NCBI GenBank assembly: GCA_023653785.1
Contig: JAMKCH010007221.1
Location: forward strand, 1 to 64,000
DNA from: Ophioderma brevispina
Taxonomy: Eukaryota; Echinodermata; Ophiuroidea; Amphilepidida; Ophiodermatidae
DNA: 64,000 nt
Direction of reading: 5' to 3'
In this document: piece by piece, positions 16,648 through 39,957 of the stretch
Numbering within the stretch: position 1 is the first letter of the stretch
Layout of the letters: every line of letters starts with the position of its first letter
The notes under the pieces: generated by a model
What the model was told of the DNA's origin: nothing
The model's input: the letters and a program-made list of their open reading frames with translations, nothing else
The model's database searches: none
Position numbers and translations under genes: made by a program

Positions 16648-16726
16648 ACTATTTTAAAATTATTTAAAATTAAGTCAAACCCAGTAAATCATTGCGAATA
16701 TTTGCTGAGGTGCATGCAACACTTAC

Positions 16727-16934
16727 TTGGATTTCCCTCCGTCTGTTTTTGTTTCGGGGTTATTTTCCCCCGGTAGGATAACGGGGACCAGACCAGGGAC
16801 GATATATGGTGGCACTGGTATGAATACGGGACCCGGAACAACTCCTACATCAGGTAATGGCAAACCCGTAACGCCTTCAAATTGATCCCCGATGACATCG
16901 TCGTCTGTTGTATCTTCAAACTCGTTATCTGTAG
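16727..16934 (-). CDS. Minus-strand secreted-protein gene, exon 3 (acidic and proline-rich)
   Basis: A 208-nt open block bounded by ATTATTACAG (acceptor, just above 16934) and GTAAGTG (donor, 16726 downward). In phase 1, which matches exon 2 of the same gene, it encodes about 69 residues. First comes an acidic part (EFEDTTDDDVIGDQFEG), then a proline-rich part (PLPDVGVVPG, IPVPPYIVPGLVPVILPG), then NNPETKTDGGKS. The other frames are closed. If the donor is not used, a TAA follows one codon later and overlaps the donor, so this could also be the last exon. The PGLVPVILPG segment resembles PGLIPPLFPP in the plus-strand gene near 39580. No known domain is recognised. Function unknown, likely extracellular because of the signal peptide in exon 1. 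Confidence 0.55.
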
Positions 16935-17281
16935 CTGTAATAATTATGGAGAAAATTTAACAATTGGGTTTACCTTAGTAAATGCAATCGGTATAGGTTA
17001 TGGGAATTTTAAATGCATCTTGTGACACCTGTTTTGCTGGACGTAAGGTTATCGAATGAACATGGTTTAAAATGTTTCTTCATGATCAAGAATGGATGTG
17101 TCATATTGCGTTTTCAAGAGTAACAGATTATATATATTTCTACTATTGCACGAATATAGGCATTCAATATTTGTTTTATATTATGATAGCACCTTTTTTA
17201 TTTTCAAGCCATGTGATAGTAATGCCTCAAATCACTGTAATCGTAATATAAAATTGTATTATTGCATCATACCATCATGAT

Positions 17282-17596
17282 GTGGGCACGTGTGGTCCAG
17301 TGGATTGAGCATTCGCCCAGCATTCCAAAGGTCGTGGGTTCGAGTCCCACTGCGGCCAACGTGTTGCGCCCTTGAGTAAGACGCTTTACCTCAATTTCTC
17401 CTCTCCACCCAGGTGTATAAATGGGTACCAGCATTATTCAATGCTGGGAAAGTAACAGACTCGCTGTGCGGGAGGAGTGGCGAACCCCCCACAGCAAAAT
17501 ATACGGAGGAGTCTGGCCCAAACGCTAAGGAAAGAGAGATGGGCACTCCGCGCACGAGCTTGGTCGGCACGACAATTTACTTTTTTTTTAACTTTT
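17282..17596 (+). mobile_element. tRNA-derived SINE with intact target duplication
   Basis: The head carries a tRNA-like A box (TGGTCCAGTGG near 17293) and a perfect B box (GGTTCGAGTCC near 17336). A conserved body follows (GAGTAAGACGCTTTACC, TGTATAAATGGGTACC, GTCTGGCCCAAACG). It is flanked by an 11-bp direct repeat, ACCATCATGAT, at 17271-17281 and 17597-17607. A T-rich end precedes the right copy. Non-coding; frames across it are spurious. A 5'-truncated relative lies at about 48005-48232. Confidence 0.9.
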
Positions 17597-17609
17597 ACCA
17601 TCATGATCA

Positions 17610-19600
17610 TGATTTCGTTCGAATTAAATACATCCTGAATCTGAAAATCTGAATCTGTGTCATATAGGGGTATTCACAGTCCACCACTAACTACGCCAGA
17701 TATAAAATAGATTTTTGATAAATTTGATAAACTAGTACTTCGCGGTTCTTGACTGAATGATCCCCGGATGACCTTTGATTCCAATGGGCGTAGAGAAAAG
17801 GTGATCGCAAACATCGTACGGATGCCATTATCACAACGCCAAATATCAGATCTAAATATCAAAGAACGGCGAAAATCATCGGACAGACAAATGAAAGAAA
17901 GTACCATTAAATCTTTTGCGGTTCTACATTTTTGTGGGAGAAACATACTTTAATGATGACATTACAAAAATGTCGAATATTGACCTTCTATGACAATTAA
18001 ACACTTCCTGATAACACCTTATGACTCACTATTTAATGATAAATCTGAGCTACATCAGTAAACACCCATGTATTTCAATAAAAGCGGCTCACTATTTTGA
18101 GCATTTTCGAATAATTTTAATGACCTGCAAACCTTCTTCTCCAAACTTCTAGAATAGCATTCTCATTTATAACCCTACTACTTTTAGAAATGACCTTAAA
18201 AAAACTGTCGTTTTAACCTGAGATGAGGTATATTCACCTCTGGTTTTAACTGCAGCAGTTGGGACTCGCTACCTGCAAATATGTAAAAAAACGTCGTTTT
18301 ATTTTGAGTTCCAGCTCCCAGATAAAATGACGTTTTATGGTCATTTTTAAATGCACCACGAATCAAATACACCAAGCCAGAAAGAGGCAACATCGTATGA
18401 GCATCTATGTGTATCATAATTATTAATCCATTGTTATCTAACAATAAGGGTGACTTGTTTTTGCTTCAACTGTCCTGTTGATCTTGCCACTCTGTTGTCT
18501 TTCAATACCGTCATGTAAATGAGAGCAAGTCGAGACAGCAGTTGAATCTAGTACAGGGTCAATGGTGTCAAACAGTTGTTAAAGACTAAGTATACGCCAC
18601 GTTTATCATCAACAGTACGTTAAACGTCATTCTGAACTAGTCCATCTAGAAGGACCCTCGTTCCTCCCTGTGTCCATCCCCCCCTGTGACCGAGCCTCTC
18701 GCGCTACGCGCTCGGTGGCTAGGTCAGTGGGAAAACGAGAGTTCTGAACACGTAACAAAGCTGTTTCAGATCAGTTCGGTGATTTTACTTATACGTAAAT
18801 TGGAAGGGTTCATAAAGTTTATTTTTATTTTTTATAAAGGTGATCTATTACACGTGAAGAGACTTTGCTCAATGGTGTTAGAAATTAATGCAAGATTTGA
18901 GATCTTTAGTGTCCAGTTCAGTGACGGATATCCAATTTTTATCATTTTTACGAGATTTTGCGAAAAGGTACTAATAACTTCTACATGCTCACCAATTTTG
19001 AAAGCTGCAAATTAATAGTAACGTAATAATCTGAATGAAAACTTTGGCCGTTTATACCGGAAGTTGAGAACAGAGATTTTGATGTTTTATATAAAAGCTA
19101 AATCCTCGTTACTTATGTAATTGCTAATCTTAAGACGGGTGTTTTAAATACTAATTTTAATCAAAATTAAATGATAAAAAATATTACTTATACAAACAAA
19201 ATATTTAAAAAATAATTGATATTGTTATTTCACACTGTTTTAGGAAATTGTCCAAATATTGCCAGTTCAAATTGCTTAATCTTAACCATGGACTCAACAT
19301 CCGTTAGAGTGTAAAACACATTAACACGCAGATTTGAGGTTACGTACGTCGATGTGTCGGATGTTCGGAAATATCGCCGATGCTGTATTATGTACCGACG
19401 GATGCCGACATTACATAATTAAATCAAGCGTCATTGCATAAATACAAGAAAATATAAATTTTCAAGTGATAATCTCATTCTCCAATTCAACTTAATCATT
19501 TGATCCATGTAATATAGATGCCTACTGACTCTGCAAAGTACTTTGGTTTAACATTCGTCACTATGTGATACACGAGACGATACGACCGTATATTATTATT
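17610..19600. other. Putative intron 2 of the minus-strand gene
   Basis: No confirmed exon. Palindromic GAGCCTCTCGCGC/GCGCTCGGTGGC occurs near 18690-18715. A 35-nt block at 18238-18272 has good acceptor and donor sequences on the minus strand, but its phase does not fit exons 2 and 3. The rest is AT-rich without clear repeats. Confidence 0.4.
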
Positions 19601-19608
19601 AAACTTAC

Positions 19609-19683
19609 CATCAAAAATGTTGTGGCCATTCATTAATTCCTCTAGTTCATGCGTGTGTTTGTCCAATTTCCTCTGGGCAATAT
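19609..19683 (-). CDS. Minus-strand secreted-protein gene, exon 2
   Basis: A 75-nt exon with a strong acceptor (TTCTTTTTGCAATAG) and a consensus donor (GATG, then GTAAGT). It is open only in phase 1 and leaves in phase 1. It encodes a hydrophilic, probably helical segment with IAQRKLDKHTHELEELMNG and ending HNIFDG. It is similar to the 63-nt exon of the plus-strand gene at 35498-35560. Both end in a GG.....F(D/E)G pattern, and the nucleotide match continues past the donor (GTARGTTTAA). That conservation across two loci is the main argument that it is real. No known domain. Confidence 0.6.
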
Positions 19684-20073
19684 CTATTGCAAAAAGAATA
19701 ACACAGATAGTGTGTCCATAAAGAAAGAGTAAAATAAAACTAATGTATATGAGTGTAAACGTCAATTGTCTTTGGCCAAGCGTGTGAAAGACACATTTAA
19801 GGGCCAACTTTGCTACCTCTTCAGTTTACGGACGCGGACTTGTACGTGTTCGTATCTGTGTCAGTTGTCTAATTTAACTAGGTAAAGTCGTCTAACCCTC
19901 AGGGACCTTAAGATTTTACTAAAGTTCACTGCATCTTGGCGTTTATAATAGAAACAAGTTGAACAGATGTTAATTTATTGTTGCAAACATTTGTTAAGCA
20001 TTTAAGATTGTTTAGTATATGCCGACGAATTACAATACATTTATACCTTTGTTAATTACCGATCTTTTCCATC

Positions 20074-20093
20074 GGGGGGGGGGGGGGGGGGGG
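20074..20093. repeat. 20-nt poly-G run
   Basis: Uninterrupted G from 20074 to 20093, within the putative first intron of the minus-strand gene. Confidence 0.95.
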
Positions 20094-20468
20094 TGAGGTG
20101 CAGGGGTTTCACCATACCATCTCGATCTAAACGACACACAGGATAAAAATTTTAAGCATTTAATAAATGAAACGATAAAAGTGGTAACTACAAGTTGTTT
20201 TCACTACTGTTGCAAGCTGCACTGTATTGCATTGTAGTGTCAATTTGGGCTTCAGCCTTGAGGCCAAGTGAAAACTTTTTTTTGACATAAACTTAACACG
20301 AATGGAAACAATTCAAGTTTTTCGATTAGATGACAAAAGCCTTTTTTGCCATTTTAGATAGAATCGTTCCTTAGAAATTACTATAGTTTTTGACTGTTTG
20401 TCCTTTAAAATCGGACCAACATATTCCCGATTGTTTTACTTTCCATGTACACAAAAAATAGAACCAAG

Positions 20469-20829
20469 CACTGTAAAAATTCCGTAAATTAAGAAACGAT
20501 TTTTCCGTAATTTAAACTGAAAACTCTGTTTAGAAACATAAAAATAAAAAACATAAAAAATAGCGTAAAATGTTAATTTTTAGCGGAATATTTCAAAAAG
20601 TTCTGGCAGCAATATTTCGGACTTTTTTTTTGGTTCCGTAATTTTTATTACGGAAAAATTCCTGTGGAAATCCCTATTTTTTTTTCATAAATATGAGACA
20701 AAGTTTCTGTAAAAATTACGTCCAAATTTCCGTTAATTACAGAAATTTTTCTGTAATTTACCCTAAAAATGACTGGAAATACTGCTTGCCAGAAATTTCC
20801 CCGTAATTTACGGACATTGTTTTACAGTG
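20469..20829. mobile_element. MITE with CACTGTAAAA ends
   Basis: The left end is CACTGTAAAAATTCCGTAAA. The right end read in reverse is CACTGTAAAACAATGTCCG, continuing TAAATTACGG. The interior is full of ACGGAAATTT-like palindromic pieces and TTTCTGGCAGC-type motifs. The element at 27966-28438 has the same composition and the same TTTCTGGCAGC motif, so the two are one family. Target duplication not resolved. Confidence 0.75.
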
Positions 20830-21360
20830 AGTGATCGAATTCACCGTAATCCTAAATCTAAAGCATCTACACGAAATTACCAACAAAAGCGGATTAATTA
20901 CAGAGACATTGGGAAGCTCATATGAAATTTTGATCATTCAATTTTGGAGAGAATACATGAAGCTCAATGTACACTATTCAGGCCTTTACAGTCTGACTCA
21001 GAGATTCGAAATATATTTTTTGGTATGTCAATCGTAAAACTAAAGATAGCAACCTAAAATGCACAATTCCGAAATGTAGATGAATCGGATTTGTCGTTGA
21101 TGCAGTAGTAGTAAACATTTATGTGTAGTAGACGTCCCATAGGATACTGTGTATACAAAAAAATTTGGATACGGAATTTATAACAAAGTTGTGTTTTTCT
21201 ATAGGAAGGAATTCGAGTTAAGCTTAGCAATTTCACACAGTGATTAGTATATGGACAAGAATTATGTCTATGCAAAAAAATACGATTTTTTTGGAAATTG
21301 AGGGCGACCTCCTCAGGAAATCTCGAGTCGGCCTTTAATTCGTACATTATTATAATCAAC

Positions 21361-21437
21361 CGCTGCGTTTTAGCAATGTGCATCCAAGCAGAAATTAACA
21401 AAAGCGAACAGCCCAAAATGTGCAACCACGATTTCAT
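21361..21437 (-). CDS. Signal-peptide exon 1, downstream copy (donor damaged)
   Basis: ATG at 21437 opens MKSWLHILGCSLLLISAW, a short basic start followed by a hydrophobic core: a typical signal peptide. It is 77 nt to the position where the other copy has its donor. Here the junction reads GCGGTTGATTAT instead of GCGGTGAGTAT and lacks one A, so the splice donor and phase are altered. Without splicing the frame runs on for 127 codons, to 21054, into sequence with no recognisable domain. The most likely reading is a duplicated first exon with a damaged donor. Confidence 0.5.
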
Positions 21438-21548
21438 CTTTGATATCTCTTTGGTTTTTCAATGAAATGTGTTCAAAGTTCTTTCAATATAAGCTGGACG
21501 AAGTGGTCAGAGACGTCTACCTTCGGTGACAGACCAGTTTAAGATGCA

Positions 21549-21558
21549 ATATATATAC
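21549..21558 (-). promoter_or_regulatory. TATA box for exon 1, downstream copy
   Basis: On the minus strand GAGTATATATATTGC lies about 110 bases before the ATG at 21437. This is a suitable distance for a TATA box with an untranslated leader of about 80 bases. The equivalent site exists in the second copy. Confidence 0.5.
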
Positions 21559-22593
21559 TCAGGGCCATTAGATACTCTATAAGATCTGGTACACAACATA
21601 ATAACATTTAACGACTCTTATACATATGTTACGTGACCTTTCTGCACAAATAAAAGAAGGCAACATTAATTTCACAAAGAGGTCAACCCCAGATGCATAA
21701 CAATAGCAATATTCAATTTAAATAATAAAATACCATCATTAAATTCAGACGAGGTTCACAAGGACAAAGTTGGGTAAATATAAATTAATTAACACTTCAC
21801 TCCTTCCCGGGAGATATGCTCTAGAAACAGATGGGGCGTTAGGGTTAATCTCGACAAAAAATCGGTATACGGGTGCATTTCTGCCTACACTTTAACAATC
21901 ATGCACAGAATCATGCACATCATAAGAACAATATGGCCGCCCTCTTCAGTCATAAACACGTACATTATTTTTAAAAGCTTAACGACCATAAGGCGGGTAG
22001 ACGTATAAAGCATTGTTCCAAGAGCGCGGACTAGATCCAAGGTAATACATGTCACGGGATCAATTTAATAGAAATGCCGTTCATCTTTTATCTGTTCATG
22101 TAATTCATGAATAAAACAAAAGACTAGGCTATGTTAAGGGTTAGAGTTAGGTTGCGGTTGTAAGGTTAAATTCATATAAAATTTGTGATTCATAGCATTG
22201 TCCCCCTCAAAAAAGTTGAGAGTTTGGTATCGTCTGAACCTGGCATACAAATTCGATCGTCTCTGCAAGAATTTAGCAAGTTGGTATTTTCTGTCTTTAA
22301 GCAGACAGACAAAAAATTGTAGCACAGTAGCCTTTAATAGGCTGTGGTAAAAGGGTCACGCCAAAAACGCACAAGATCAGAGTCAACTGGAATTTCTGGA
22401 TTAGGAAAAAAAAAAAAAAAAAAAACACCCAATCATATATCTTAAATCAATCTTCACAGAATTAAAAAAAAATCGGGATTATTAGAAGACATTGGAAGCA
22501 TCATCATGATTTTTGATCATTCAATTTTGGAGAGAATTACCTGAAGCTCAATTTTACACTATTCAGGCCTTAATAGTACATTATTATACTCAC

Positions 22594-22671
22594 CGCTGCT
22601 GTTTTAGCAATGTGCATCCAAGCAGAAATTAACAAAAGCGAACAGCCCAAAATGTGCAACCACGATTTCAT
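22594..22671 (-). CDS. Minus-strand secreted-protein gene, exon 1 (signal peptide)
   Basis: ATG at 22671 begins 26 codons that start MKSWLHILGCSLLLISAW and end AKTAA. The exon closes with a consensus donor GTGAGT in phase 0. Basic N-terminus and hydrophobic core make a clear secretory signal. The first exon of the plus-strand gene (30240-30314) has the same length class, the same phase, and an aligned end (SAW.HIA.....A). Exon 2 at 19683 is entered in phase 1, so direct splicing would break the frame. Either a small linking exon is missing or a base is wrong. Of the two copies of this exon, only this one retains a good donor. Confidence 0.55.
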
Positions 22672-22780
22672 CTTTGATATCTCTTTGGTTTTTCAATGAA
22701 ATGTGTTCAAAGTTCTTTCAATATAAGCTGGACGAAGTGGTCAGGACGTCCTACCTTCGGTGACGACCCGTTTAGAGATG

Positions 22781-22791
22781 CAATATATATT
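22781..22791 (-). promoter_or_regulatory. TATA box for exon 1, upstream copy
   Basis: On the minus strand GGAATATATATTGCATC lies about 115 bases before the ATG at 22671, in the position equivalent to the TATA-like site of the other copy. Confidence 0.45.
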
Positions 22792-23699
22792 CCGTCAGGG
22801 CCATTAGATCTCTATAAGATCTGGTACACAACATATAACATTTAGACGCCGACTCTTATTCTTATACATATGTTACGTGACGTGACCTTCCTGCACAAAT
22901 AAAAGAGGCACCATTAATTTCACAAGAGGCAACCCCGGTAGATGCATAATAAATCAATAGTCATTTAAATAATAATACCATCATTAAATTCAGACGAGGT
23001 TCACAAGGACAAAGTTGGGTAAATATAATTAATAACACTTTCACTCCTTCCCGGGAGATATTGCCTCTAAAGAAACCATGGGGCGTTAGGGTTAATCTCG
23101 ACAAAAAATCGGTATACGGGTGCATTTCTGCCTACGCTTTAACATCATCACATAATCATGGACTCATCAGAACAATGATCGCCGCCCCTCTTCAGTCATA
23201 AACACGTAAATTATTTTAAAAAGCAACGACCTACGGCGGGTAAGCGTATAAATCATGTTCCAAGAGCGCGCGCGGCCTATATCCAAGGTAAAAGTCACGG
23301 GTCATTTATGAAATGCCGTTCATTCTTTTAGCTGTTCTTGTAATTCATGAATAAAACAAAAGACTAGGCTATGTTAAGGGTTAGAGTTAGGTTTGCGGTT
23401 GTAAGGTTAAATTCATATAAAGAGTGTGTATCATAGCATTGCCCCCTCAAAAAAGTTGAGAGTTGGGTATCGCGTCTGAACCTGGCATACACATTCGATC
23501 GCTCTGGCAAGAATTTTAAGCAAGTTGGTGATATTTTACTGTCTTTTAAGCAGCGAAGACCAAAAAGTTTGTAAGCACATTACCTTTAATAGGCTTTATA
23601 AAAGCGTCAGCACGTGCAAAAACGCACAGATCAAGTCAACTGGAATTTCTGATTAGGATCTTTCTCAAGGAGATCTAGTGAACATAGATAAAACAGACA

Positions 23700-24640
23700 C
23701 AGCTTTTTGACCCCTGTAAACCGTCTTTTTATTGTAATCAAATTTTAAGCAATTTTAAGCGTGGCGACACAATTTTGAATTTGACAACTGATATAAATAA
23801 GTAGGGACATGCAAGCGCTAGGTGATCTTCGAAGCAAATCCGGAAAAATGCATTGCGGGAATCTTGCATATAGACCTACAAAGGTCGGATTTATTTGTTA
23901 TAGTGCCCTCTATGCCATTCCCCATAGAGAGACGGTTCACTAATTTTTAAAAAATTCACATATTTGCCCACCATGAAGTTTTCATAAAATTTACCACATG
24001 CAGTCTGGGTGGGAATAAATAATCTGAATTAGTAGGCCTACAAGTGGTCGCCCTTTAAAATTTTTTGTTTTATTCACCCTGTTTGTCATAATAATGATAC
24101 TTTCAAACAGTTGGGAGGAACTGTGCCTAAAATCACGAATGCACCTTCAAAACTTACAGCAAACCATAAAACTCGTGGGATATAACTTTAAATACAATTT
24201 ATTTGTTATTTTGGTTATTTATGATTATTGCCAGCCGTGTATTCACAGTTTATTTCTACAATCAATACACTTTATTATCTTGTTCCAATTGACATAATTT
24301 CAACCTGAAAGCCAAAGTTTCAAAAGTAGTGAACGAAATCTGACAAAACCCTAGGCAGAATGTAGAAATTAAAAGGGGTTTAAAATCTGGCACCAATTGG
24401 GCTCACTTTATTTAAACTTATTTTTACTGGAAAACATAATTGGTCACATTCTCATATAGACCAAACTTGGAATGACATTATGACGAAAAATACGTTGTTT
24501 CAGCCAGGCGTGGGCCCGTGTTTTGGACAGTTAGTGACCTTCTGAATAGCAATAATCGTGTTCTGCCTGATTCTGATTAATCTTCTGCTCTTGCCAATGG
24601 TTTCTGCCAATTTTTCACAGACACAGTCAAGAACATTCGC
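23700..24640. other. Region between the divergent genes, nothing recognised
   Basis: AT-rich with no clear gene. The 67-codon frame at 24094-24297 lacks motifs and splice context. Confidence 0.4.
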
Positions 24641-24644
24641 AATT

Positions 24645-24873
24645 TCATGCATGCATACCGTGCATGCATACCTGCAATGCATACGTGCATCATACCGTGC
24701 ATGCCTACCGTGCATGCAAACCGTGCATGCTACGGCATACCGGTACCTTCCGCAATTTCACATGCCTGCATTACCTGCATGCATACCGTGCATGCATACC
24801 GTGGCATGCATACCGTGCATGCATACCGTGCATGCATACCGTGCATGCATACCGTGCCTTCTACCGTGCAGAC
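24645..24873. repeat. Minisatellite of 13-bp TACCGTGCATGCA units
   Basis: Head-to-tail copies of TACCGTGCATGCA, with variants, arranged in two blocks. Each block is introduced by CGCAATTTCA (near 24638 and 24751). Each unit contains the self-complementary TGCATGCA, so the array is open in several frames on both strands (Cys/His/Met-rich). These frames are artefacts of the repeat. Confidence 0.95.
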
Positions 24874-24879
24874 GGAATA

Positions 24880-26390
24880 AAGCGTGTAATCCATGGGATT
24901 CTGTTTTGTTTTTCGTTTCGTTTGTTTTTTCGCAAATAGCAGTAAGCGCAATATAATCATTATGTTGTTTTTTTATTGTTGTTGTCCTTTATTTGCTGAA
25001 AAACACTCTGGTTTTGACTCGTTTGCCACAGAGTCATACAGCGTAATATATGCAATTGCATTGGACTCCGATGGAACCAATCTTGCTACATAAAATTTTT
25101 TGACTTGATTAAAGAGTGTTCCTTACAAAAGTTTACATTGAAAAAAATTGTGTTCACGAGCATACTTATCCGAGGATTCAGCGCTTTGCTCGAGAGATGG
25201 GACACGTCCCCTGCACCCATGCACCCATTTCCTCAAAGTGTGCCCCCCTTCTTTAAATTTCTGGATCCGCCACTGGTTTCAGAGTTCTTATCAGCTTAGT
25301 CATTTTAATGCGGCTTTAGTACAGCAATTTCTAATACAACAATGCAAAAAATGCCATCTTCGAGAAAAAATTGGGTCGTAGTTTGTTACACTTTGTGTGC
25401 CCGACATTCATTAGACTTGCGAGGAACTGAGGCATGTAATTCAGTCGAAGGTATACAATGATATATTAATAATTACTTCTTGTAACGATACGCTAACTGA
25501 ATCTTAAGACAAGGCAAATTCAATAACAAGCCAAGTAAGTGATGATGGGTCCAACGCCAACATGTCAATGTCTTTAAAACAATGAAAACAATGCAAAACT
25601 GCGACAGCAGTCGAATCACTTTGATCGCATGAGAAATCTTCGGTATAGATAGCAGAATATGGATATATTAATTAAATGTTAATTCCAAACTAGATTTGTT
25701 GCCCCAGGATGACCTTGAACCGTATCAGGGCTGTTGACCTAAAGGTCAGAATCTTGCCAAACCACATTTTTTTAATCCTAATAATGGGACAACTATATTG
25801 GTATACATTTAAACACAATTTAACTTAATTTCAAAATTTACTCCTACACTAATCCCCCTTATTTTACAATGTTCTCACATTTCCCAGAGGTTCAGCACCT
25901 TGAAACTATAGAAACACATCTTCAAACCTTCTTCCCAAACTTCGAGAATAGGATTTTCACTTATAACCCCACTAAACTCGTTAAGACATTTTCGTGTAAA
26001 GTATACACTGATGCGTTAAGCAATAACGCGTTTATGTGTTTATATTTTATGATAAAATATTACCACGTATCTGAATTGGATTAACACTACGTGTTAACTC
26101 ATTGAGTTAACTCATAAGTATGAACCATTTAACACTTAGAGACAGCGGGTGTTTTACTATGCCATTTTAACTTTTCCTGTAAATGTTGTATAAGTTGCCC
26201 ATTCGTAGGAGCAAATGATCAATGTTGATATGTATAATGAAAATGTTAAATACAGTGTGAACATGTAAAAAATTGGTGTTGATTGCTTAATACATGTGCT
26301 GTTATGTTCAAAATGTTTTGCTAATATATCAAACGTACAAATGTGAAAATGTAAGCACCGCTGTTGATTTGCAAACACTGAATGTTAATA
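24880..26390. other. Intergenic with repeat debris
   Basis: No gene recognised. Around 25190-25280 a C-rich stretch ends in GGATCCGCCACTGG, which looks like one end of a CAGTGGCGGATCC-type transposon, but the partner end is not seen. Around 26080-26110 GTTAACTCATTGAGTTAACT is palindromic. Confidence 0.4.
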
Positions 26391-26397
26391 AAGTTAA

Positions 26398-29310: not shown

Positions 29311-29319
29311 ATCAACGTT

Positions 29320-30100: not shown

Positions 30101-30114
30101 TGGCTTGAAGGCCA

Positions 30115-30122
30115 TATAAAAG
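30115..30122 (+). promoter_or_regulatory. TATA box of the plus-strand gene
   Basis: TATAAAAG about 118 bases before the ATG at 30240, within a small inverted repeat (CATATGGC ... GCCATATA). This predicts a transcript start near 30145 and a leader of about 95 bases. The placement mirrors the TATA boxes of the minus-strand gene. Confidence 0.55.
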
Positions 30123-30239
30123 TTGAGGGATACGTTTAAAATTTCATTACGATCAAGGCCGTGACGGTCGGAATAGCTAGGAAACTGGTCGAAAACGACT
30201 TTAGATCACTTGGAAAGTCCTTCAACTCATCAGTTCAAA

Positions 30240-30314
30240 ATGGAGGTGTGTCTCCGTATCGCTGTTGTCATGCTGTTGGCGTCTTCCGCATGGCACATAG
30301 CTGAAAATAAAGCG
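30240..30314 (+). CDS. Plus-strand secreted-protein gene, exon 1 (signal peptide)
   Basis: ATG at 30240 in the context CAAAATGG opens 25 codons: MEVCLRIAVVMLLASSAW, ending AENKA. This is a textbook secretory signal. The exon aligns with the minus-strand signal exon at 22594-22671 in length, in its SAW.HIA end and in its splice position. The donor here reads GCAAGT, so the intron would be of the rare GC-AG type, at the exact position of GTGAGT in the paralogue. It ends in phase 0. The next exon I can prove (35498) needs phase 1, so a linking exon within 30.3-35.5 kb is expected but was not found. Confidence 0.6.
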
Positions 30315-30319
30315 GCAAG

Positions 30320-31380
30320 TATTCTAGTTCGTTAAAGATTCGTTTTATAGAGCGCCGATTATTATATTACACACCCATATGACGCGTGTGCAAATGTAAA
30401 ATGGTGCAGCTATTCAAGTTTCGAGGGTCAGAACTATAACTATCATATTAAAACTTGAAAAGGTGGACTTTGCACAGCAGGAAACATATAATTAGACGCT
30501 TGCATCTTTTAAAATAATATTAACATATGACCCTTGACTAAAGTGCGTCATCCCTTTTTACATTTTTGGCCATAGCGTCCTCGTTTTATGTTTGGTGTAA
30601 TAACAAACTATGCATTTTTAATTCCATATGAATCAGGGGATCAATTGGACCATGATAATGATTCCTTGGAAAAGTATTCTTTGCCCAAAGGAAAAACATC
30701 AACCATCTATCAGGCAAATCCTTCAACTTGTTCCCATAGTTTGGTCATGGATCAATAGGCTTGTTCTCGTAACCGACCGGGGGGGGTCTGTGGGTCAGTT
30801 CCCAAAATTAGAGAATTTCGACCAATTTCATCTAGATTTGGGCACAATTACATGGGTAATTCTTTTCGTGCATTTCGTCAGTTCCAGACTTATTGGAGCA
30901 AATCACCGAGACGACTTTTTTTACGGATCGGGTATTTACGATTTTGGATTTTTGCCCCCCCCCCCCCTTCCCCCTCCCCCCCCCCCCCCGGACGACTGCC
31001 TCGGTAAGCCACTGGATCCTCTACCATATTAAATGTTTTTTTGTAATTCTCAGTTCAGGTGATCATTCTTTCAGTTTCGGAGACGTAGACTTATCTTAAT
31101 CAACGCAGTTATATGAATGTAAGTCAATCACCACCGGAATTGGTACCAATGCCACCACATATAGATTATCTTGTCAACATATCATTTATTGGCAAAATTA
31201 ATGACATCATCCAAATGTATCTTTAAAATCTTTTCTTTGCTGTGTCGTCGGCACAAGCATTGCGTGAGACAACATACTATATTCAAATTCTGTATGTCCG
31301 GCCGTGTGTATGTACATCTTATGTGTGTTTACCATGTTTCGGGAACCTTTTCTCCAAATTTCTCTTGTGCATGGACACCT
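30320..31380. other. Putative intron 1 of the plus-strand gene, first part
   Basis: C-rich tract at about 30956-30989. Two overlapping open stretches exist near 30570-30760. One encodes ESGDQLDHDNDSLEKYSLPK, which faintly recalls the acidic part of the minus-strand exon 3, but no convincing splice sites bound it. Confidence 0.35.
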
Positions 31381-31383
31381 TAA

Positions 31384-31579
31384 TAGACCGTATTCAAAAT
31401 TACGTCAGCCCAACCAGCCCTGTTGGTGGACAATGCATACATTCCGCCTAATACAATCGAATCCAGTGTTAGCGATTGCACAGGGATCATGTGTGACAGA
31501 TGCATTTATTGTAGTACTCTGGAATGCGTCTCAATACTTGTCCACCAACATGGCTTGAGCTATTGAATCGAAGGTTCTA
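31384..31579. mobile_element. MITE family with TAGACCGTATTCAA ends, copy 1
   Basis: The left end TAGACCGTATTCAA and the right end (reverse: TAGAACCTTCGATTCAATA) are diverged inverted repeats. Internal blocks TGTTGGTGGACAA near the left and TTGTCCACCAACA near the right pair with each other. The centre holds GATTGCACAGGGATCATG. Same family as 62071-62239 and 63745-63924. The three short frames crossing it are spurious. Confidence 0.85.
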
Positions 31580-31849
31580 TTTCCAATTACCACTAAACTC
31601 TGGCTCAAGCTCAGTTGACTAAACTCGTTTGCTTACATACAAGGTCAAAGTAGTCAAGACAGATATCGTATAGTCAAAAACATTTGTTTTTAATTTCGTC
31701 ATACTTTTTTGGATTATGTCAACCATCTATTAACAGATATACTAGTATGAGTAATTGATAATCCAATATCTTGAAGTGTCATATTGACCCTAATGTTTGC
31801 ATTTTAACCCTATGTTTAATTTAAAAACAAAATGTCACAAATAAGCTTT

Positions 31850-32850
31850 TATTGTTCAAAGAAATGGTATCTCATAAAGAATTTATAATAATTATGGATG
31901 ATATAAAATATTAAAAAGATTTTAACTAATAAGTTCAAAATCTTGCAAGGTGGCTATTTTGGCTGCCATCTTACATTTTAAAGTGTGTTAACCTACTAGA
32001 AATAAAATTATGAGTTTCTGAAATGGTGCAAGTATATATTCTACCATATTTTAATTTTACACTCTTTGATGGTCCTTGGATGCTATAATATAATTGGTAT
32101 GGCACTTCTAGTTTGAAAGGTTTTGGAAAGTGGTCATTTTGAAATGTAGCATGTGGATACAAAACTGTACACTATTATTTTCTATTAAGGGGAAAGACAT
32201 ATTTTTTCGTACTTTAGTGCCACTTTGATTGGAACTTTGGGATAACACGTATGACATTTATAAGATTTTAAAATCACATGTATGTGAAGGTGGCCATATC
32301 GGCGGCTCTCTTAAACTTTGTTGACTCAAAACAAAGTTGCCGATAATGGGTTCTTACATAGACATTTTATCTCATACTCAATAGTAGCTCAGTCTTTAAT
32401 TTACCCTTCTTAAACCTTAAATGTTTTGGATAACATAACGAATATATATTATTGATAATTTGCTAGGTTTAACGTCAACCAACTTGACTTATGAGGGTCA
32501 AGGTTAACAGCAAATTGCCATGCAGAATTTTTTAAACATCAAGGCATAAGGCTATCTCATATTCTAATGAATCATCCTAATGATATCAGTAAAGCCTATA
32601 TACAACAGGTATCTTGTATTTAGGTTTTAAGATCTTTGACGATGGCCATATGGCCCATCTTGAAATGGGATCACCTAACAAAGCAATATGGCCAGATATG
32701 ACTATGTAATTGTCAGAAACATTATAATTTACAATTTGTATTTCTGTATGAATGTACCTAACATATTACATAAATATGGTATCTTAAAACGTTTTAAAGA
32801 TTTTTTGAAGGTGACCTACAATGGCCACCATCTAAATTTTTTTAGCTATT
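31850..32850. repeat. Degenerate repeat array with GCCATCTT-type motifs
   Basis: Diverged repeats share the order GGTATCTCAT ... TTTTAAGATTT ... AAGGTGGCCATATTGGC-CCATCTT. They are recognisable at about 31865-31980, 32265-32315, 32620-32660 and 32780-32830. Related motifs recur at 56160-56350 and 61110-61290. Non-coding. Confidence 0.5.
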
Positions 32851-32859
32851 TGGAAAAAC

Positions 32860-35490
32860 CAAATTAGTAGATATTTTTTCATAAAAGCATGACAGGTAAC
32901 ATACATATATTCAGACTTCATTTGCACAGTTATCACAGTTTTTGCAGGCACCCAAAATGTTTGTGGATATAACATTGCTATGTGTTTCGTATGCAATATA
33001 TATGTAGAAGAGAGATATATATATAATACAATACAAAATATAATAAACAACAGTGTGAAAATCCTGGAGGAGTTGAATGATCATACCATAATGAAGGAAC
33101 ATACATCGATGACAACTTTTTAGGTGTAAAAGTACTGTCTTTATTTTTTAGACCAAATAACGCACCTCTTAAAAATAATTGTTACAAATAAAACTTACCA
33201 TTATCAACTTTATCACTGGCTTTTATACAGCTTTAATATACCACTCACTGACAATAAATACATGTAGACATGGCTTAAATATCATTTGAGTGGGGACATT
33301 TGCAAGTTGGCAGTCGTGTCATTCAAATGGGAATCCGGGATATGGGTAAAGCTGACTACTTGTTTAAAGGACGTACCGACCTATATTAAAGACACACTAT
33401 CAGTGTTTTAAAAATATTTGAAATTTGCAGGAAGGAATAGCTTCAAAGTGAGTCTGTAGAATTCTCATTAAGTTACCTTGTCCAGCTGTAGATTGACAAG
33501 AAAAGGAAGAAACGGCAAGTGTTCCAAGATACGATTCTCCTCAATTACGTGTGTAGTAAGGTCGTTTCGACAGTATTCCTAAAATCTCCGATTCTGTCCT
33601 TATTAGGTGGCTTCTGTACTTATCATTTGCAGGTATGTTAGGCTACCTACACTTGTTACGGACCTGCTGAATCTATTTTTGATGATTTTTTGATTGTAGA
33701 TTTAGCAATCACTGATAGGTCTTTAACCGATTGGAATTAATATTTGCAGCAAATATTAAAGCTAATGGTGAAATAGGCTTTCCGATGTTACCAAAATATA
33801 GAGATATGTTGATTTAAAAATTCAAAATGGCGGACACAATCAGGGTTCAAAGTTTTCTTACTAAGACTATGTAATATTATTCTACAGTATATGAACGTAC
33901 TCGTTTTTACATGTACTAAACTACATTATTTTATAATCTTGTTAAACCAGTGATGTCCCCAACTCGTCCAGGCTGTATTAAAACAATGATGTTTGGTATG
34001 CTATAAGAAAAGAACTTCTATGTTGACTCCTAGTGACTGATTGTAATATTATTTAACATTATTTTAGGCCGGTGGCCTCGATATACCAATGAATAAATTC
34101 TCTCCATTTGGAAGCTGAAAATGGGATAGAACTCGCGGATTAAATGGTCTTAAGACCAAGTGTCCTACACTTTATCCGTTAAGCCACATGTGAGCTTAAT
34201 TAAGACAGCAGGCAAGTTAAAAACTTAGTTTTTTTGATTTATTTTCAAAATAGCACTGAAACATCTCGGTTTCTAGATATAAACAAAATTTACAGAAATT
34301 TTGATGATTTTTTAAGATTGTCTATTGGTATTGTTTAAAGTTTTAATGTTCCAACTATCTTTCCTTGTTCATGAATTAAACCATTTCCCCCTCAAACTTT
34401 ATTTCAGTTCCCAAGCAGCTTTACGTCGGACACGTGATGAAGGCAATGTCGTAAGAGCCCGTTAAAGGTTATTATTCAGTATCGTGTATTTCTACATTAG
34501 TCACGCTCAAAGCTGACACACACTCGCTTAACATTATTGAGTAGCCGCATCTCAAGAGAAAATAAAACGTGCCATCAAACGGCTACCTGTTAACAGGTCA
34601 GGCTTAAGAAATCAACTTTTTCAATTCCATTTACATTTTTTTTCTTATTTCTCTCAATGTTTGATGTGACTGTGGGGGGCCGCGAATCATTTTAAGTGAT
34701 TTTTTAAAGGGTTAAAGGAGATAACAATTCTAGATTGTGAGGTAATATCCGTCAGTTTTAACGGAATAAAATTGCGTTTTAAAATTAGAGTTTTTTTTAC
34801 CCATATGAGTTAATAATGTAGTGTTTCGCCCCTCCTATGGATGTACCTGGCGCCGCCTGACATTGGTAATCGGCCCATATTCAAATCATTGTCTTAAAAC
34901 AAACATCTCCAAAAGCTGATCAAATCAATCACGGTCCGTTACTTGTTAATGATTGACAGAAAACACACGACACGAGAATTTAGTCCACCTTTCAAAAGAC
35001 GTGTTATAGGACCAGATGAGTAGTGGTGTGGTTTTCAAAACAATTAGATCTTTTTACTCTGACCCCCTATACAAAAATTAACCCCTTATTTTTTTTATAT
35101 TATTAAATTTCAGATTGTTGATTTTTCTAGACTTTTGACCACATTTACTCTGTGACAATTTAGAAGTATGATAACACAACCAATGTTTGTTGCAATTTTT
35201 TACATCAAAAAAACAATTGTCTGACTATAGGGTTGTCGCTAGCCGGGGTGGCCGGAGTCTATCGTGGTTGAATAATATAACCTTTTACGAACTAAAAGGA
35301 TCATGGGTCGTCAGTTGTGATCAATCGGGTCGACGTGGGATGGAGAAGCTTCACTTGACCAATGTTTAAATAATCGAATAAACGCCAATATTATTCCCAT
35401 GACTACACTATCTTCGCTCTCTTCACCATGTGTAACCATGTTTATAGTCTTCCTTTTTTCGCCTACTTTATGTGTATGCATATTTATCTT
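32860..35490. other. Putative intron 1 of the plus-strand gene, last part
   Basis: AT-rich, with a simple TA-rich patch near 33015. Two weak exon candidates were examined (33434-33450 and 34399-34441), but neither connects exon 1 to exon 2 in phase. No other gene is evident. Confidence 0.4.
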
Positions 35491-35497
35491 TAAACAG

Positions 35498-35560
35498 CAT
35501 CGTCGGAGAAACGTATTTATGCGATTAAAGAGTTAACTGGCGGCAAAGAAAAATTCGAAG
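35498..35560 (+). CDS. Plus-strand secreted-protein gene, exon 2
   Basis: A 63-nt exon with acceptor TATTTATCTTTAAACAG and donor GTAGGT. It is open only in phase 1 and leaves in phase 1. It encodes SSEKRIYAIKELTGGKEKFE, a charged segment ending in the same F(E/D)G as the minus-strand exon 2. The last 30 nt of the exon and the first 10 nt of the intron are similar in both genes. It joins the exon at 39228 in frame. No domain recognised. Confidence 0.6.
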
Positions 35561-35569
35561 GTAGGTTTA

Positions 35570-37590
35570 AAACTGAACTTTTATGATATCACATTAATTT
35601 TGTTTTTACATGGGCATGAGCGTGGGTTTAGCTTGTCTTCTTCACTGAAAACGCTGAATCGTTTGAAACCATTAAAACGTCATAATAACAATTGATGTAT
35701 AGAGGGTGGAGATGAATTCCATATATGGATACTGGTTTGAAACCCTGATTTCCCCCAACAGTGAGGAGAAATTTAAGGGGGAAGCATACCACAATGGATG
35801 AAAAGGGATTCTGTTATATTTTCTTGAGTATCGATGATAGTCCAGGAACTTTAGGATCTGTGTAGCCAGAAGGCGGAAATAAATAAGCCATGGCTGATTA
35901 TTTTCAGAATAGTTTTCTAATTTTGTGGGGAGCAAAATACTAAAAGTCCTCTAGAGTCCCCCTTGTGCTTATCTAGGAATAAGGGGTAAGGTTTATACAG
36001 GGGTAAAATTTTTTTAATATGATCCAATTGAGTAAATCATTGACTATTGTATTCTTCTAGTCTCACTGATTAAGAAAATGTATAGTTTGCCTAACCTTTG
36101 ACCTTTAGGTTTAGGAATACAGGCCGAAAAATGTTCAAGGTCATCGTGGGGTAAAATTTTTAAAAACAATCAGATTTTAATCAAACTAATTCCATATTAC
36201 TTACCCATTTGACACGGTCATATTAAGGTGAAATAAATTCATTCCTTCAATCTACATCTTTTTAATATCGACCTTATAGGCAGCGGCTTTTGACCTTCCA
36301 TATAGACCCTGTAGTAATCTGTCATAATGAGCCCTAAAACTATGCAAGTAAACTACTTAACTGTTTACAGTATATTCAGTTTATACACAACGAGAGGAAC
36401 ACATAGACACACTTTTGAAAAGAATCTGACCCTTTAATCCCAGTATGACCTTGAACCTATATTTCCATATAGTTAATTAACCATAAACCGTAGATAGGGC
36501 AAAATATGTCTTTATCATCCTTATGACATGACACAAACGATGGTATACATTTGAAAACAATTGGAACATTATAAAATTTGGCCCCCCTGTACAAACTTTA
36601 CCCCCTTATTCCAAAATTAGCACAAGGAGGAAACTTGGGGACTTTTGATATGTTGCTTCGCACTTTAGGGAAACTATCTTGAAAAATTCAGCTATGGTTT
36701 TTTTATTTATTTCCGGGTGCTTTTCTATTTATCTTGGACTATGATATACCATTGATCCAAAACCAATTGTCATAGATAGTACAAACTATACATCTTTATG
36801 ATTAGACGGACAATTATGACAAACTTTTCAGCATGTTTGGAGCATAAAAGTTTGACCTCTGGGTAACCTTAAAATGGAAAAGAGAACAAAATTCGCGATG
36901 TTAAGAGTCGTCCCTATATATATATATGGTGGTGAACAAAGTAGAGGCAATTGCATAAACACCGCAAAATATACATGATTTTTATACGGAGATGGATTTT
37001 CAAAACAACACGGTACATATCACTAGGGATGGGCGATAAATATTATTTTTTTCACATTATGGTCAAGGTCCCTTTGCGTTGTATTTGAAATGTTCAATCA
37101 AAAATCTTAATTCATATTTGGTAATAGGTAAGATAATTATATTCCAATGGATTTACAATGAACCAGTAAAGCTAAGCATGTCATTTAAAAAGAAACCGAA
37201 TTAGGCCACAGCATCAAAGGGAAAAATATGCTCAGATAGGGACTTTAGTTACGTATTTCGGCAAACTGAATGATTATTGCATAGACATCACTGAAGATAT
37301 AGCTTCAGCATACTGTGCAAACTTATAAAAGTTGCAAATTTTCTTCAAAATGATACAAATCTCATTCAATTTAATTCCCTTTAATGTTCAGTGGACCAAG
37401 TGAATGTGCATCATAGCAAATTATTTCAGCAAATAATATCGCTGTTGATATTCAGAACCGTCGCGTATGCGGAGGAGAAAGCATTCCAGATTCCTTTTTA
37501 CCAAGACGTGCAGAACCATTGGTACTGCCCATGCACTTGAAAAGATTTCAGGTGTTATCACCACCCCGATTTAAATCGAGCTATCTCGAA
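35570..37590. other. Putative intron 2 of the plus-strand gene, first part
   Basis: Non-coding, with scattered TGACC half-sites (for example CCTTTGACCTTTAGG near 36098) and a short (TA)n run near 36915. A 19-nt block, CTTCCATATAGACCCTGTA, near 36295 recurs partly at 13670-13690 (TTTCCATATAGACCCTTTG). Confidence 0.4.
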
Positions 37591-37598
37591 AAAGTAAT

Positions 37599-37872
37599 AA
37601 GTTGCTCCGATTTGGATAAAAAATGGTGAACATTATTGGTGGAGCTCATAGGATTAAAATAAGAAATAGTTTTGAGTGTCTCAAATTCTTGCTTAACAAC
37701 GTAGGGGAAATAAGATCAAGCCTCATTGAATGCAATGGACGTTGACCTTCTGATCTGTGCCCCCTACAACAGAAACTAACACTTTAAGACTGACAAACTA
37801 ATCCTTATTTTAATCCTATGACCTCCACCAATAATTTGCACTATTTTTTATCCAAATCAGAGCAACTTTCAA
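37599..37872. repeat. Inverted repeat with roughly 73-bp arms
   Basis: The left arm (37599-37672) contains GTTGCTCCGATTTGGATAAA and ATTATTGGTGGAG. The right arm (about 37795-37872) is its reverse complement with about 10% difference. The loop is about 120 bases. Probably a fold-back MITE in an intron. Confidence 0.8.
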
Positions 37873-38336
37873 ATTTGACCCTGTACAATTGAAATTGACC
37901 CTTATTATTTATTTTTGCTGTTTTTAGCCTATAACTCTGAAACTTTAGGCTGTACATATTACAAACTATACCTTTTCTGAATCTTTATGGTTAGACACAT
38001 AACGTGGTGTACTTTTCAACATGATTGGATCAGTTTAAACATTCGACCCCACCCCTGTACAATCTCTTGCTTTGGCCCTTTGTCTTTGGTCCTTAAAGCA
38101 CCATTGCATCCACGTAAGAATCACGTTTCCACGGTTCCTGTCAGGCTGTCAACATTTAATCACTCAAACCTTTTGTACTTGGGGGAGATGTGTTACAATG
38201 TGTGCTAGCTCACTGATCAAATGGTCTTAATGTGTGCTACTGAAATACTATCATTGCATATATTTTCACCACAGTACCCACACAGTATTCCTTTAAATGA
38301 GCGATAAGTCTTTTCTTGTCCTTAACAATATTACAC

Positions 38337-38860
38337 TTTTTTTGAAGATGCGCCCCCCAATTTTTCAAAAAAATTGAGAATTTTTACACGGTTTGCAATC
38401 TTGGTAACGGCTAGTAACTATACGCTTAATGGGTTTAGCTCGAAAATGTCTATGTGTCACAAAACGAAGGAATTTTGTAAGTAGAATACTTAGTTATCGA
38501 ATCTCCGTAATATTCAACGGCTGCTGGAAACAGCCTTCTAATGTGAAGTTAGCCCGGAAATAGCGCCTGTTCGTGTCTACGCTCATCCATTATTTTTTTT
38601 TAATCTGGTTCGGCAGTTCAAGTTAAGTTATTTTCTCGAGGTGGGCACATTTTAATCATGGACGAAGGTAAACGTAGCAATTTCCATCCAGCTCTGCCGT
38701 TAAGTCCAATCTGGGATCCCACTTCTAATTACAAAATCGCTTGTTTTATGATAAATACGCATTTTTTAGCATTCTCGTTCGCAGGTATAGTTCCCTAGAC
38801 AATTACCAACTGTGCAAAAATATCAAATTTTGAAAATTGGGGGCGCTCTTCAAAAATGTG
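38337..38860. mobile_element. MITE with roughly 60-bp terminal inverted repeats
   Basis: The left end is TTTTTGAAGATGCGCCCCCC and the right end in reverse is TTTTTGAAGAGCGCCCCCAA. Homology continues inward through AATTTTTCAAAA and CACGGTTTGCAAT. The interior is non-coding. Target duplication not resolved. Confidence 0.75.
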
Positions 38861-38869
38861 CCATTATTG

Positions 38870-39200
38870 CTTTTAAGATATCACGGTATTTCTAAAACAG
38901 CCCTCATGTGCAGTATGTAATTTGGAACGCAAGACAAGAGCCAACCTGGGAGGAATGTCCTTATCTCAAGACCTAGGCCAGTCCTATTCAACACTCCTCC
39001 AGAGATGGCTGTGGATCTTTTTAGACATTGCCATTTTTAATACCTCCCCAGTGGTATCAGGTTTCAAACCACTTGTATTATATTGTATTGTGTATAATCT
39101 TGTTTAATATGTTTACCTGTATGGAATGTGTCTGCCCATTCCGTATCCTGGAATACTTGTAGATTCTTCTATATTACTTAATAAAGATTGAATGAATAAT
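38870..39200 (+). mobile_element. Possible LINE 3' end
   Basis: The stretch ends TTAATAAAGATTGAATGAAT, a poly-A-signal-like sequence followed by a short repeated tail, similar in style to CR1/L2 3' ends. The 61-codon frame at 38922 has no motif. No reverse transcriptase sequence is visible upstream, so this is a weak call. Confidence 0.35.
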
Positions 39201-39227
39201 ATGAACTTATTTGTTTATACTTCACAG

Positions 39228-39750
39228 TAATAAATGCTATAGACCTACAGGGAGACGGTACGGAGGGTCCATTTGGCGAAGGCACGGAGGGTCCATTTGG
39301 CGAAGGCACAGTTGGTCCATTTGACGAAGGCACAGTTGGTCCATTTGACGAAGGAACGGTGGGTCCATTTGACGAAGGGACTGTGTGTCCGTTTGGCGAA
39401 TGCACGGTGGGTCCGTTTGACGAAGGGACGGTGGGTCCATTTGACGAAGGCACGGTGGGTCCATTTGACGAAGGAACGGTGGGTCCATTTGACGAAGGCA
39501 CGGTGGGTCCATTCTGAACAGATGACCACAGTATTTCCACTTAAAGCTACTCCATTGCCGCTTGGAGCTCTTCCCACCCGGTTTAATTCCTCCATTATTT
39601 CCTCCAGATTCCCCCAAATCCTCAGGAAGTTTCAACAAGTCCTCAGGAAGTTCCGCCAAGTCCTCCAGAAGTTACGCCGACATCGTCGGAGAAAAAGATG
39701 TATCGTACAATGACTTTAGCACGGGCATACGCCCAAGCGTTTTAGGTTGA
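39228..39750 (+). CDS. Plus-strand secreted-protein gene, last exon (octapeptide repeat; frame broken)
   Basis: Acceptor TTATACTTCACAG precedes 39228. Entered in phase 1 from exon 2, it reads VINAIDLQGDGTEGPFGEG, then about ten copies of an eight-residue acidic unit (GTVGPFDE and variants). It reaches TGA at 39512-39514. Beyond this, another frame is open to a stop at 39750. That frame has a proline-rich part (FPPGLIPPLFPPDSP), three Ser/Lys heptads (KSSGSFN, KSSGSSA, KSSRSYA) and a tail ending RPSVLG. PGLIPPLFPP resembles the proline-rich part of the minus-strand exon 3, so this tail was probably once in frame with the repeats. The break falls between about 39510 and 39575. Either it is a real inactivating change, or base errors are present, or the short form is the real product. 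A poly-A signal follows at 39952. Confidence 0.55.
39258..39515 (+). repeat. 24-bp coding minisatellite (octapeptide repeat)
   Basis: About ten and a half copies of a 24-bp unit, from GGTCCATTTG(A/G)CGAAGG through to the next GGTCC. Because 24 is divisible by three, several frames on both strands stay open. The splice phase selects the frame with GPFDEGTV. Substitutions between units fall mostly at third positions and at the D/G and V/E sites. The minus-strand paralogue has no such array. Confidence 0.9.
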
Positions 39751-39951: not shown

Positions 39952-39957
39952 AATAAA
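39952..39957 (+). terminator. Poly-A signal of the plus-strand gene
   Basis: AATAAA about 200 bases after the stop codon at 39750, the first such hexamer downstream of it. It predicts cleavage near 39970-39980. The segment around it is duplicated at about 40570. Confidence 0.5.

What the first reader, a model, noticed from the sequence alone, without database searches (positions are those of the whole stretch)
16727..39750. Two related, divergently oriented genes for unknown small secreted proteins
Both strands show the same three-part layout: TATA box and signal-peptide exon, a tiny charged exon entered and left in phase 1, then an acidic and proline-rich exon entered in phase 1. Minus: 22594-22671 (or 21361-21437), 19609-19683, 16727-16934. 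Plus: 30240-30314, 35498-35560, 39228 onward. Exon-2 similarity continues across the donor into the intron, and exon 3 of both contains a PGL(V/I)P..(L/F)P segment. I recognise no known family. A head-to-head pair of diverging secreted proteins, one with a repeat expansion, would suit a structural, adhesive, mineral-binding or defence role, but the sequence does not decide which.
Basis: partly seen in the sequence, partly recalled or inferred. Interest (0 to 1): 0.85.

Follow-up and report, generated by a model that had tools for sequence, protein, structure and literature searches.

The report
Family of diverging secreted repeat proteins
The two genes are real relatives, and three more copies in the same animal genome show a small family of secreted, proline-rich proteins in which different copies have multiplied different short pieces of one shared exon; what the proteins do is not yet known.

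Summary
g1 (minus) and g2 (plus) are related three-exon genes: signal peptide, tiny charged exon, variable last exon. Within the window alone the homology was thin (g1 exon 3 against the g2 repeats: none). Reading on along the contig and searching the 2.51-Gb assembly found three more members: g3 on the same contig, g4 on C1131, g5 on C60845. Exon order, phase-1 junctions and TATA boxes agree. Exons 1-2 show purifying selection among g2-g5, and the g2 array varies synonymously in one frame only.

New point: exon 3 seems once to have held two segments in series. g2 multiplied the first (8 aa, about 11 times); g3, g4 and g5 multiplied the second (28-32 aa, about 32, 20 and 22 times). g4 keeps what reads as a single first segment before its array. 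g1 has neither array.

No Pfam or database relative, and no meaningful PDB relative, was found. Most likely: lineage-specific, disordered extracellular matrix, mucus or gel proteins; tissue and function unknown. Frame breaks in the g2 tail and in g3-g5 are probably assembly errors. The source is probably a brittle star (inferred from assembly size only).

The parts
22784..22789 (-). g1 TATA-like box
   Evidence: 118 nt before the ATG (letters checked)
22590..22671 (-). g1 exon 1, signal peptide, 82 nt, phase-1 donor GTATAA
   Evidence: Open frame with exons 2 and 3; aligns with exon 1 of g2-g5; second of 3016 window fragments to a profile of g2-g5 exon 1, E=0.66
19609..19683 (-). g1 exon 2, charged, 75 nt, phase 1 in and out
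   Evidence: third of 3016 fragments to a profile of g3-g5 exon 2, E=2.8
16723..16934 (-). g1 exon 3, acidic start and proline-rich end, stop TAA; no tandem array
   Evidence: best-scoring piece against the g2 tail p=0.0005. A donor-like GTAAGT overlaps the stop, so a further exon is not excluded
21356..21437 (-). copy B of g1 exon 1 in a 1.1-kb tandem copy (21330-22406 against 22566-23658)
   Evidence: 144 nt identical to copy A over leader and exon; no donor; both copies occur only here in the assembly
20989..21329 (.). insertion just behind copy B, flanked by TAAAGGCC on both sides
   Evidence: similar stretches at 13795-13998 and on C1131
30115..30120 (+). g2 TATA box
   Evidence: 125 nt before the ATG
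30240..30318 (+). g2 exon 1, signal peptide, 79 nt, phase-1 donor GTATTC
   Evidence: 80% identical to g3 exon 1
35498..35560 (+). g2 exon 2, charged, 63 nt
   Evidence: best of 3016 fragments to a profile of g3-g5 exon 2, E=0.29
39228..39517 (+). g2 exon 3 up to the first stop: acidic start, then 10.6 copies of a 24-nt unit (39260-39513) coding TVGPFDEG
   Evidence: 13 synonymous and 10 nonsynonymous differences between successive units in this frame, 0/22 and 1/21 in the others
39518..39742 (+). g2 family tail: pieces homologous to the g3 exon-3 unit and tail, in three different frames
39952..39957 (+). candidate poly(A) signal AATAAA of g2
   Evidence: position only

Best explanation
SHOWN: a family of at least five genes on one plan: signal-peptide exon, small charged exon, large last exon, joined in phase 1. 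SHOWN: the last exon of four of them carries tandem arrays with unit lengths divisible by three (24, 84, 84, 96 nt), built from two different segments. INFERRED: both segments stood in series in an ancestral exon, and different paralogs multiplied one or the other. INFERRED: the products are secreted, largely disordered, proline- and glycine-rich extracellular material (matrix, mucus, cuticle or gel) whose length and physical properties change as arrays grow and shrink. CONJECTURE: in g3-g5 each unit carries a Gln and a Lys pair between PPG turns, which would suit enzymatic cross-linking.
For: Same exon order on one strand in five loci. Exons 1+2: dS above dN in 6 of 6 pairs among g2-g5; three of the six tested by Fisher: p=0.0005, 0.0002, 0.003. 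g2 array frame test. g4 reads like one g2-type segment directly before its array (by eye through noisy sequence), and g2 holds g3-type pieces SEQMTTVFP and FPPGLIPPLFPP behind its array. Composition: g3 unit 21% P, 7% G; g5 unit 28% P; g1 proline-rich part 28% P, 17% G; no Cys in the pieces measured. In g3 the unit's Gln is kept in 28 of 28 readable copies and the Lys pair in 28 of 28 and 29 of 30; g5 19 of 20, 17 of 18, 17 of 19.
Against: No transcript, protein or tissue evidence. No signal-peptide or disorder predictor was run; both are judged from composition. The frame test is weaker in g3 and g5 and goes the wrong way in g4 (27/64 in the gene frame, 32/59 in another). Gln is kept in only 12 of 17 g4 copies, and P, G, I and F are kept as well as Gln and Lys, so cross-linking is not singled out. 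g1 and g2 have no such unit array.
Confidence: 0.5

Rival explanations
1. Skeletal (biomineral) matrix proteins: secreted, acidic, repetitive proteins occluded in calcite, convergent on sea-urchin spicule matrix proteins.
For: Secreted, low-complexity, duplicated, repeat-diversifying genes are what the field expects of such proteins, and brittle-star skeletal C-type lectins have proline-rich low-complexity tails (PMC4336488, passages). g1 pieces: 20% D+E against 7% K+R.
Against: No C-type lectin or other domain found. The published brittle-star skeletal proteome was seen only in passages; its unmatched peptides were not compared.
Confidence: 0.2
2. Fast-evolving reproductive or defence secretions (seminal, egg-coat or coelomic), with repeats diversified by conflict.
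For: Mammalian REST genes have the same kind of plan and show repeats in different paralogs in different species (PMC7556508, passages). SpTrf immune genes are clustered, with a leader exon and a repeat exon (PMC5491942, passages).
Against: Exons 1-2 are under purifying, not diversifying, selection in the pairs measured. No homology to either family was found by Pfam. No population or species comparison was possible.
Confidence: 0.17
3. Multi-copy peptide precursor: each g3-g5 unit ends in a Gly-Lys-Lys site that could release an amidated peptide.
For: GKK is kept in g3, g4 and g5 units.
Against: In g5 the site is GKKP, and proline after a dibasic site disfavours convertase cleavage (recalled). 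The g2 array has no dibasic site; g1 and g2 each have one dibasic pair in exon 2.
Confidence: 0.06
4. Pseudogenes: some or most members have lost their frames.
For: Frame breaks in the g2 tail and throughout the g3-g5 arrays; an offset in g4 exon 1 and a one-base difference at its exon-2 donor; copy B of g1 exon 1 has no donor.
Against: Gap openings exceed mismatches in the g3 array (191 against 121 in 2686 bases) although the 84-nt consensus is open in one frame only, as expected of uncorrected long reads; g4 97 against 91, g5 105 against 107. Purifying selection on exons 1-2. g1 and the g2 array are intact.
Confidence: 0.07

Closest known systems
REST / semenogelin-type seminal coagulum genes of mammals
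   Same: Signal-peptide exon first; repeat-bearing major coding exon; repeats found in different paralogs in different species (Svs2 in murids and cricetids, Svs3a in a blind mole-rat; PMC7556508, passages).
   Different: Most of those genes have one major coding exon and a non-coding third exon; here there are three coding exons. No sequence relation was found.
Sea-urchin SpTransformer (Sp185/333) genes
   Same: Small clustered genes, conserved leader exon, repeats in the variable exon, disordered product (PMC5491942, passages).
   Different: Two exons, a Gly-rich region, RGD and a His-rich region there; three coding exons and no RGD or His-rich stretch here.
Echinoderm spicule matrix proteins (SM50 type, OwSM20-24)
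   Same: Secreted, proline-rich low-complexity or repeat regions that diverge between paralogs and species (PMC4336488, passages).
   Different: Those carry a C-type lectin domain; none found here.
Involucrin (recalled, no call: different segments of one exon expanded in different mammal groups)
   Same: Alternative segments of one exon multiplied in different lineages.
   Different: Not secreted by a signal peptide; not related in sequence as far as I know. Two paper searches did not surface the original work.

Membership tests
Echinoderm spicule matrix proteins | C-type lectin domain | tested here: not met
   No Pfam family at E<=1 in three queries; g1 and g2 at E<=10: one sub-threshold unrelated match
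Echinoderm spicule matrix proteins | proline-rich low-complexity or repeat region | tested here: met
Echinoderm spicule matrix proteins | occluded in the mineral | not testable with these tools
   needs a proteome
SpTransformer (Sp185/333) | two exons | tested here: not met
   three coding exons
SpTransformer (Sp185/333) | RGD motif and His-rich region | tested here: not met
   no RGD in g1, the g2 ORF or the g3 and g5 units; 5, 1, 0 and 0 His. g4 and the noisy parts were not counted
REST / semenogelin genes | signal-peptide exon followed by one major coding exon and a non-coding third exon | tested here: not met
   three coding exons; some REST members also depart from the plan (PMC7556508, passages)
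REST / semenogelin genes | transglutaminase substrate | not testable with these tools
   only Gln and Lys positions seen
Multi-copy neuropeptide precursor | peptide copies separated by cleavable dibasic sites across members | tested here: not met
   GKK in g3 and g4, GKKP in g5, none in the g2 array

The most novel reading that the evidence does not exclude
A previously undescribed, lineage-restricted family of cross-linkable, proline-rich elastomer or gel proteins, in which paralogs independently amplified different segments of one ancestral exon, forming an extracellular material of a brittle star (or related animal) without a known counterpart.
Probability: 0.2. Interest if true: 0.7.

Novelty: new member of a known kind. 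Interest (0 to 1): 0.45.

Why it matters
It is a compact case of repeat expansion inside an exon: five paralogs with a preserved leader exon, charged exon and (in g2-g5) tail, and two alternative segments multiplied, with g4 apparently keeping both. A brittle-star skeletal proteome paper judged the extensive duplication and concerted evolution of repeats seen in spicule matrix genes to be specific to sea urchins (PMC4336488, passages). If the source is a brittle star and these proteins are made, brittle stars have at least one repeat-expanding secreted family of their own, though not a spicule matrix family. It also shows that array-bearing genes of this kind are hard to annotate in this assembly, because the arrays are full of single-base indels.

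Tried and rejected
Protein database (5.8 billion): g1 (first model) 6 word-sharing candidates, none at E<=10; g3 composite 400 candidates, none at E<=1. The collection may hold few animals, so this is weak evidence of absence. PDB: g1 one chain, a phage tail adaptor, E=0.016; g3 composite 7 chains at E<=0.1 (best 0.00019), designed repeat proteins by their names, with 0 stretches passing on their own. I take both as composition matches. Rfam 0 matches, tRNA 0. Window 3700-5100 read with stops as X against Pfam, to look for a retrotransposon: 0 families.

An intron inside the g2 array joining repeats to the tail was considered and dropped: the tail homologs lie in three frames, so one splice cannot join them.

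A phase-0 junction for g1 (exon 1 to 22594, exon 2 from 19672) gives an open 117-aa protein. It was my first model, used. I gave it up because g2, g3 and g5 share the phase-1 GTAT donor and because VNIAQRKLDK then aligns with VTIAISRLEK.

C5506:32670 (E=3.1e-7 to the g2 array) is an array that reads EGTCGPVD in one frame and ends in what looks by eye like a tRNA-derived element: a look-alike. C20472 (E=8.5; read), and C3567 (E=2.1; not read), were not taken as members. Of the 77 rows outside the five genes, only C5506 was examined; two (C47685, C5874) have lower E-values (3.7e-9, 7.7e-9) and may be low-complexity matches or further members.

Whether copy B of exon 1 is a real tandem duplication or an assembly artefact was not settled: gap openings exceed mismatches (59 against 45), yet 144 nt over leader and exon are identical.
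Full report
WHAT WAS CHECKED. The window is contig C7220:1-64000 of an assembly of 2,514,598,782 bases in 65,844 contigs, so a eukaryote. The claimed pieces were read and translated. Then g1 = 22671-22590, 19683-19609, 16934-16723 on the minus strand (369 nt, 122 aa) and g2 = 30240-30318, 35498-35560, 39228-39517 on the plus strand (432 nt, 143 aa).

HOW STRONG IS IT WITHIN THE WINDOW. Protein shuffles, 2000 each (first model of g1): exon 1 p=0.0035, exon 2 p=0.001, exons 1+2 0 of 2000. g1 exon 3 against the g2 repeats: none (p=0.86); against the PGLIPPLFP piece p=0.0005; against the middle piece p=0.18. Four DNA comparisons (300 shuffles) gave p=0.08, 0.047, 0.64 and 0.15, so similarity running into the intron is not established. 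On the window alone the finding was suggestive, not safe.

MORE MEMBERS. The contig goes on to 87,353. Reading on showed a third gene, g3, minus strand: exon 1 79531-79453 (80% identical to g2 exon 1), exon 2 75135-75052, exon 3 from about 71450 to 68460. Protein searches of the whole assembly (g1, g3 composite, g2, and a partly mis-typed query) found two more loci with the same exon order on one strand: g4 on C1131 (minus; ATG at 17294, exon 2 about 14023-13941, exon 3 about 9265-7200) and g5 on C60845 (plus; 9742-9820, 16346-16420, about 21061-23510). C1131 was fetched whole and 40 kb of the 107-kb C60845. Five is a lower bound, because the search scores only best candidates and not every weak row was followed. 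g3 and g4 share blocks in the same order over about 15 kb (C1131 2.6-17.7 kb, C7220 64.7-80.0 kb) and are close in exons 1+2 (dS 0.07): a recent duplicate or a diverged haplotype.

INDEPENDENT TESTS. (a) A profile of exon 1 from g2-g5, run against 3016 six-frame fragments of the window, ranks g2 (in the profile) first and g1 second (E=0.66); copy B is ninth. A profile of exon 2 from g3-g5 only ranks g2 first (E=0.29) and g1 third (E=2.8). These E-values are not significant alone; rank, strand and order together are the argument. (b) Exons 1+2 among g2-g5: dS above dN in 6 of 6 pairs. Fisher tests were run on three of the six: g3-g5 p=0.0005, g4-g5 p=0.0002, g2-g3 p=0.003. g1 was left out, g2 entered with 15 codons of exon 2, and g4 without its first four codons. 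(c) Successive g2 units differ by 13 synonymous and 10 nonsynonymous changes in the gene's frame, 0/22 and 1/21 in the others. (d) Unit lengths 24, 84, 84 and 96 nt are all divisible by three. The frame test on the long arrays is weaker: g3 45/76 against 25/96 and 27/94; g5 33/74 against 22/85 and 25/82; in g4 it goes the wrong way, 27/64 against 32/59 and 14/77. (e) All five have a TATA-like box 70-142 nt before the ATG.

WHAT THE LAST EXON SHOWS. The starts look alike: g1 EFEDTTDDD and g3 FQDTTDTIEFED; g2 VINAIDLQGDGTEGPFG and g3 VNEMDLLQGDRTKGQLG. Then g2 has 10.6 copies of a unit coding TVGPFDEG, while g3, g4 and g5 have about 32, 20 and 22-23 copies of DSEQLPTIFPPGALPTFFPPGKKASDDV, the same ending in DNV, and DSEQLPTIFPPGAMPTLFPPIFPPGKKPNDDV. 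Before its array g4 reads, by eye and through noisy sequence, like a single g2-type segment followed by a g3-type unit. Behind its array g2 holds SEQMTTVFP and FPPGLIPPLFPP, an unmultiplied g3-type segment. The simplest account is an ancestral exon with both segments in series, of which different paralogs multiplied one or the other. Tails agree as well: PPNPQEVSTSPQEVPPSPPEV in g2 and PPNYPVQTSPPEAPTNPPEAPTH in g3 (tblastn E=1.9e-4). g1 ends GGKSK-stop, so exon 3 is probably its last, though a donor-like GTAAGT overlaps that stop.

ASSEMBLY QUALITY. Gap openings against mismatches: g3 191 and 121 in 2686 bases, g4 97 and 91 in 1718, g5 105 and 107 in 2171. A homogeneous unit with so many indels looks like uncorrected long reads. 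The frame breaks in the g2 tail, in g4 exon 1, at the g4 exon-2 donor and in the g5 exon-3 start probably have the same cause; decay is not excluded. The 1.1-kb tandem copy around g1 exon 1 (88% identity, 45 mismatches, 59 gap openings) contains 144 nt without any difference over the 5' leader and exon 1, found at these two places only in the assembly. I have no settled account of this: constraint on the transcribed part, gene conversion or uneven polishing are possible.

SOURCE. The brittle star Ophioderma brevispinum is reported with 2,684,874,461 bp in 88,538 scaffolds, 38.4% GC, from PacBio and short reads, and Ophiothrix spiculata with 2,764 Mbp in 75,696 scaffolds (PMC9367165, passages). 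G000 would fit the former if short scaffolds were left out. This rests on size alone; no taxonomic test was run.

FUNCTION. Nothing known matches: Pfam gave one sub-threshold match for g1 (Cohesin_load, E=0.32) and none for the rest; no database protein; no meaningful PDB chain. What sequence allows: a hydrophobic leader (judged by eye), low complexity, high P+G, few Cys (1 in g1, 3 in the g2 ORF, 0 in the g3 and g5 units), and in g3-g5 one Gln and two Lys per unit, well kept in g3 and g5, Gln less so in g4 (12 of 17). Extracellular structural material is the most economical reading (about 0.5); skeletal matrix, reproductive or defence secretion, and peptide precursor are rivals. Cross-linking is an untested idea.

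LITERATURE SEEN. Search listings. Passages only: PMC9367165, PMC4336488, PMC5491942, PMC7556508. None of these listings showed a title or opening of an abstract that describes this family; preprints and most subscription papers lie outside the library, so this does not show that it is unpublished.

Noticed in passing
21367-21510 and 22601-22744 (-): 144 nt of perfect identity over 5' leader and exon 1 inside two tandem copies that otherwise differ by 45 mismatches and 59 gap openings; only these two places in the assembly.
   Followed up: partly
39908-40041, 40246-40521, 40522-40925: Duplication behind g2: 134 nt identical and 276 nt at 98.6%; the first copy has about 200 bp more between the two blocks.
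   Followed up: no
17327-17590 and 47993-48239: Two copies (80%, opposite strands) of an element that looks by eye like a tRNA-derived SINE.
   Followed up: no
5523-7857: Neighbouring long repeat copies, 81% identical over about 1.5 kb, related to 9735-10036.
   Followed up: no
14288-14349: 62-nt run of C on the plus strand.
   Followed up: no
24648-24870: 17 copies of a 13-nt unit TGCATGCATACCG between the two genes.
   Followed up: no
35498-35511 and 39681-39694: The first 14 nt of g2 exon 2 recur exactly in the g2 exon-3 tail; chance or an old internal copy.
   Followed up: partly
C5506:32300-33300 (L056): Tandem array reading EGTCGPVD in one frame, a look-alike of the g2 unit EGTVGPFD, next to what looks like a tRNA-derived element.
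   Followed up: partly
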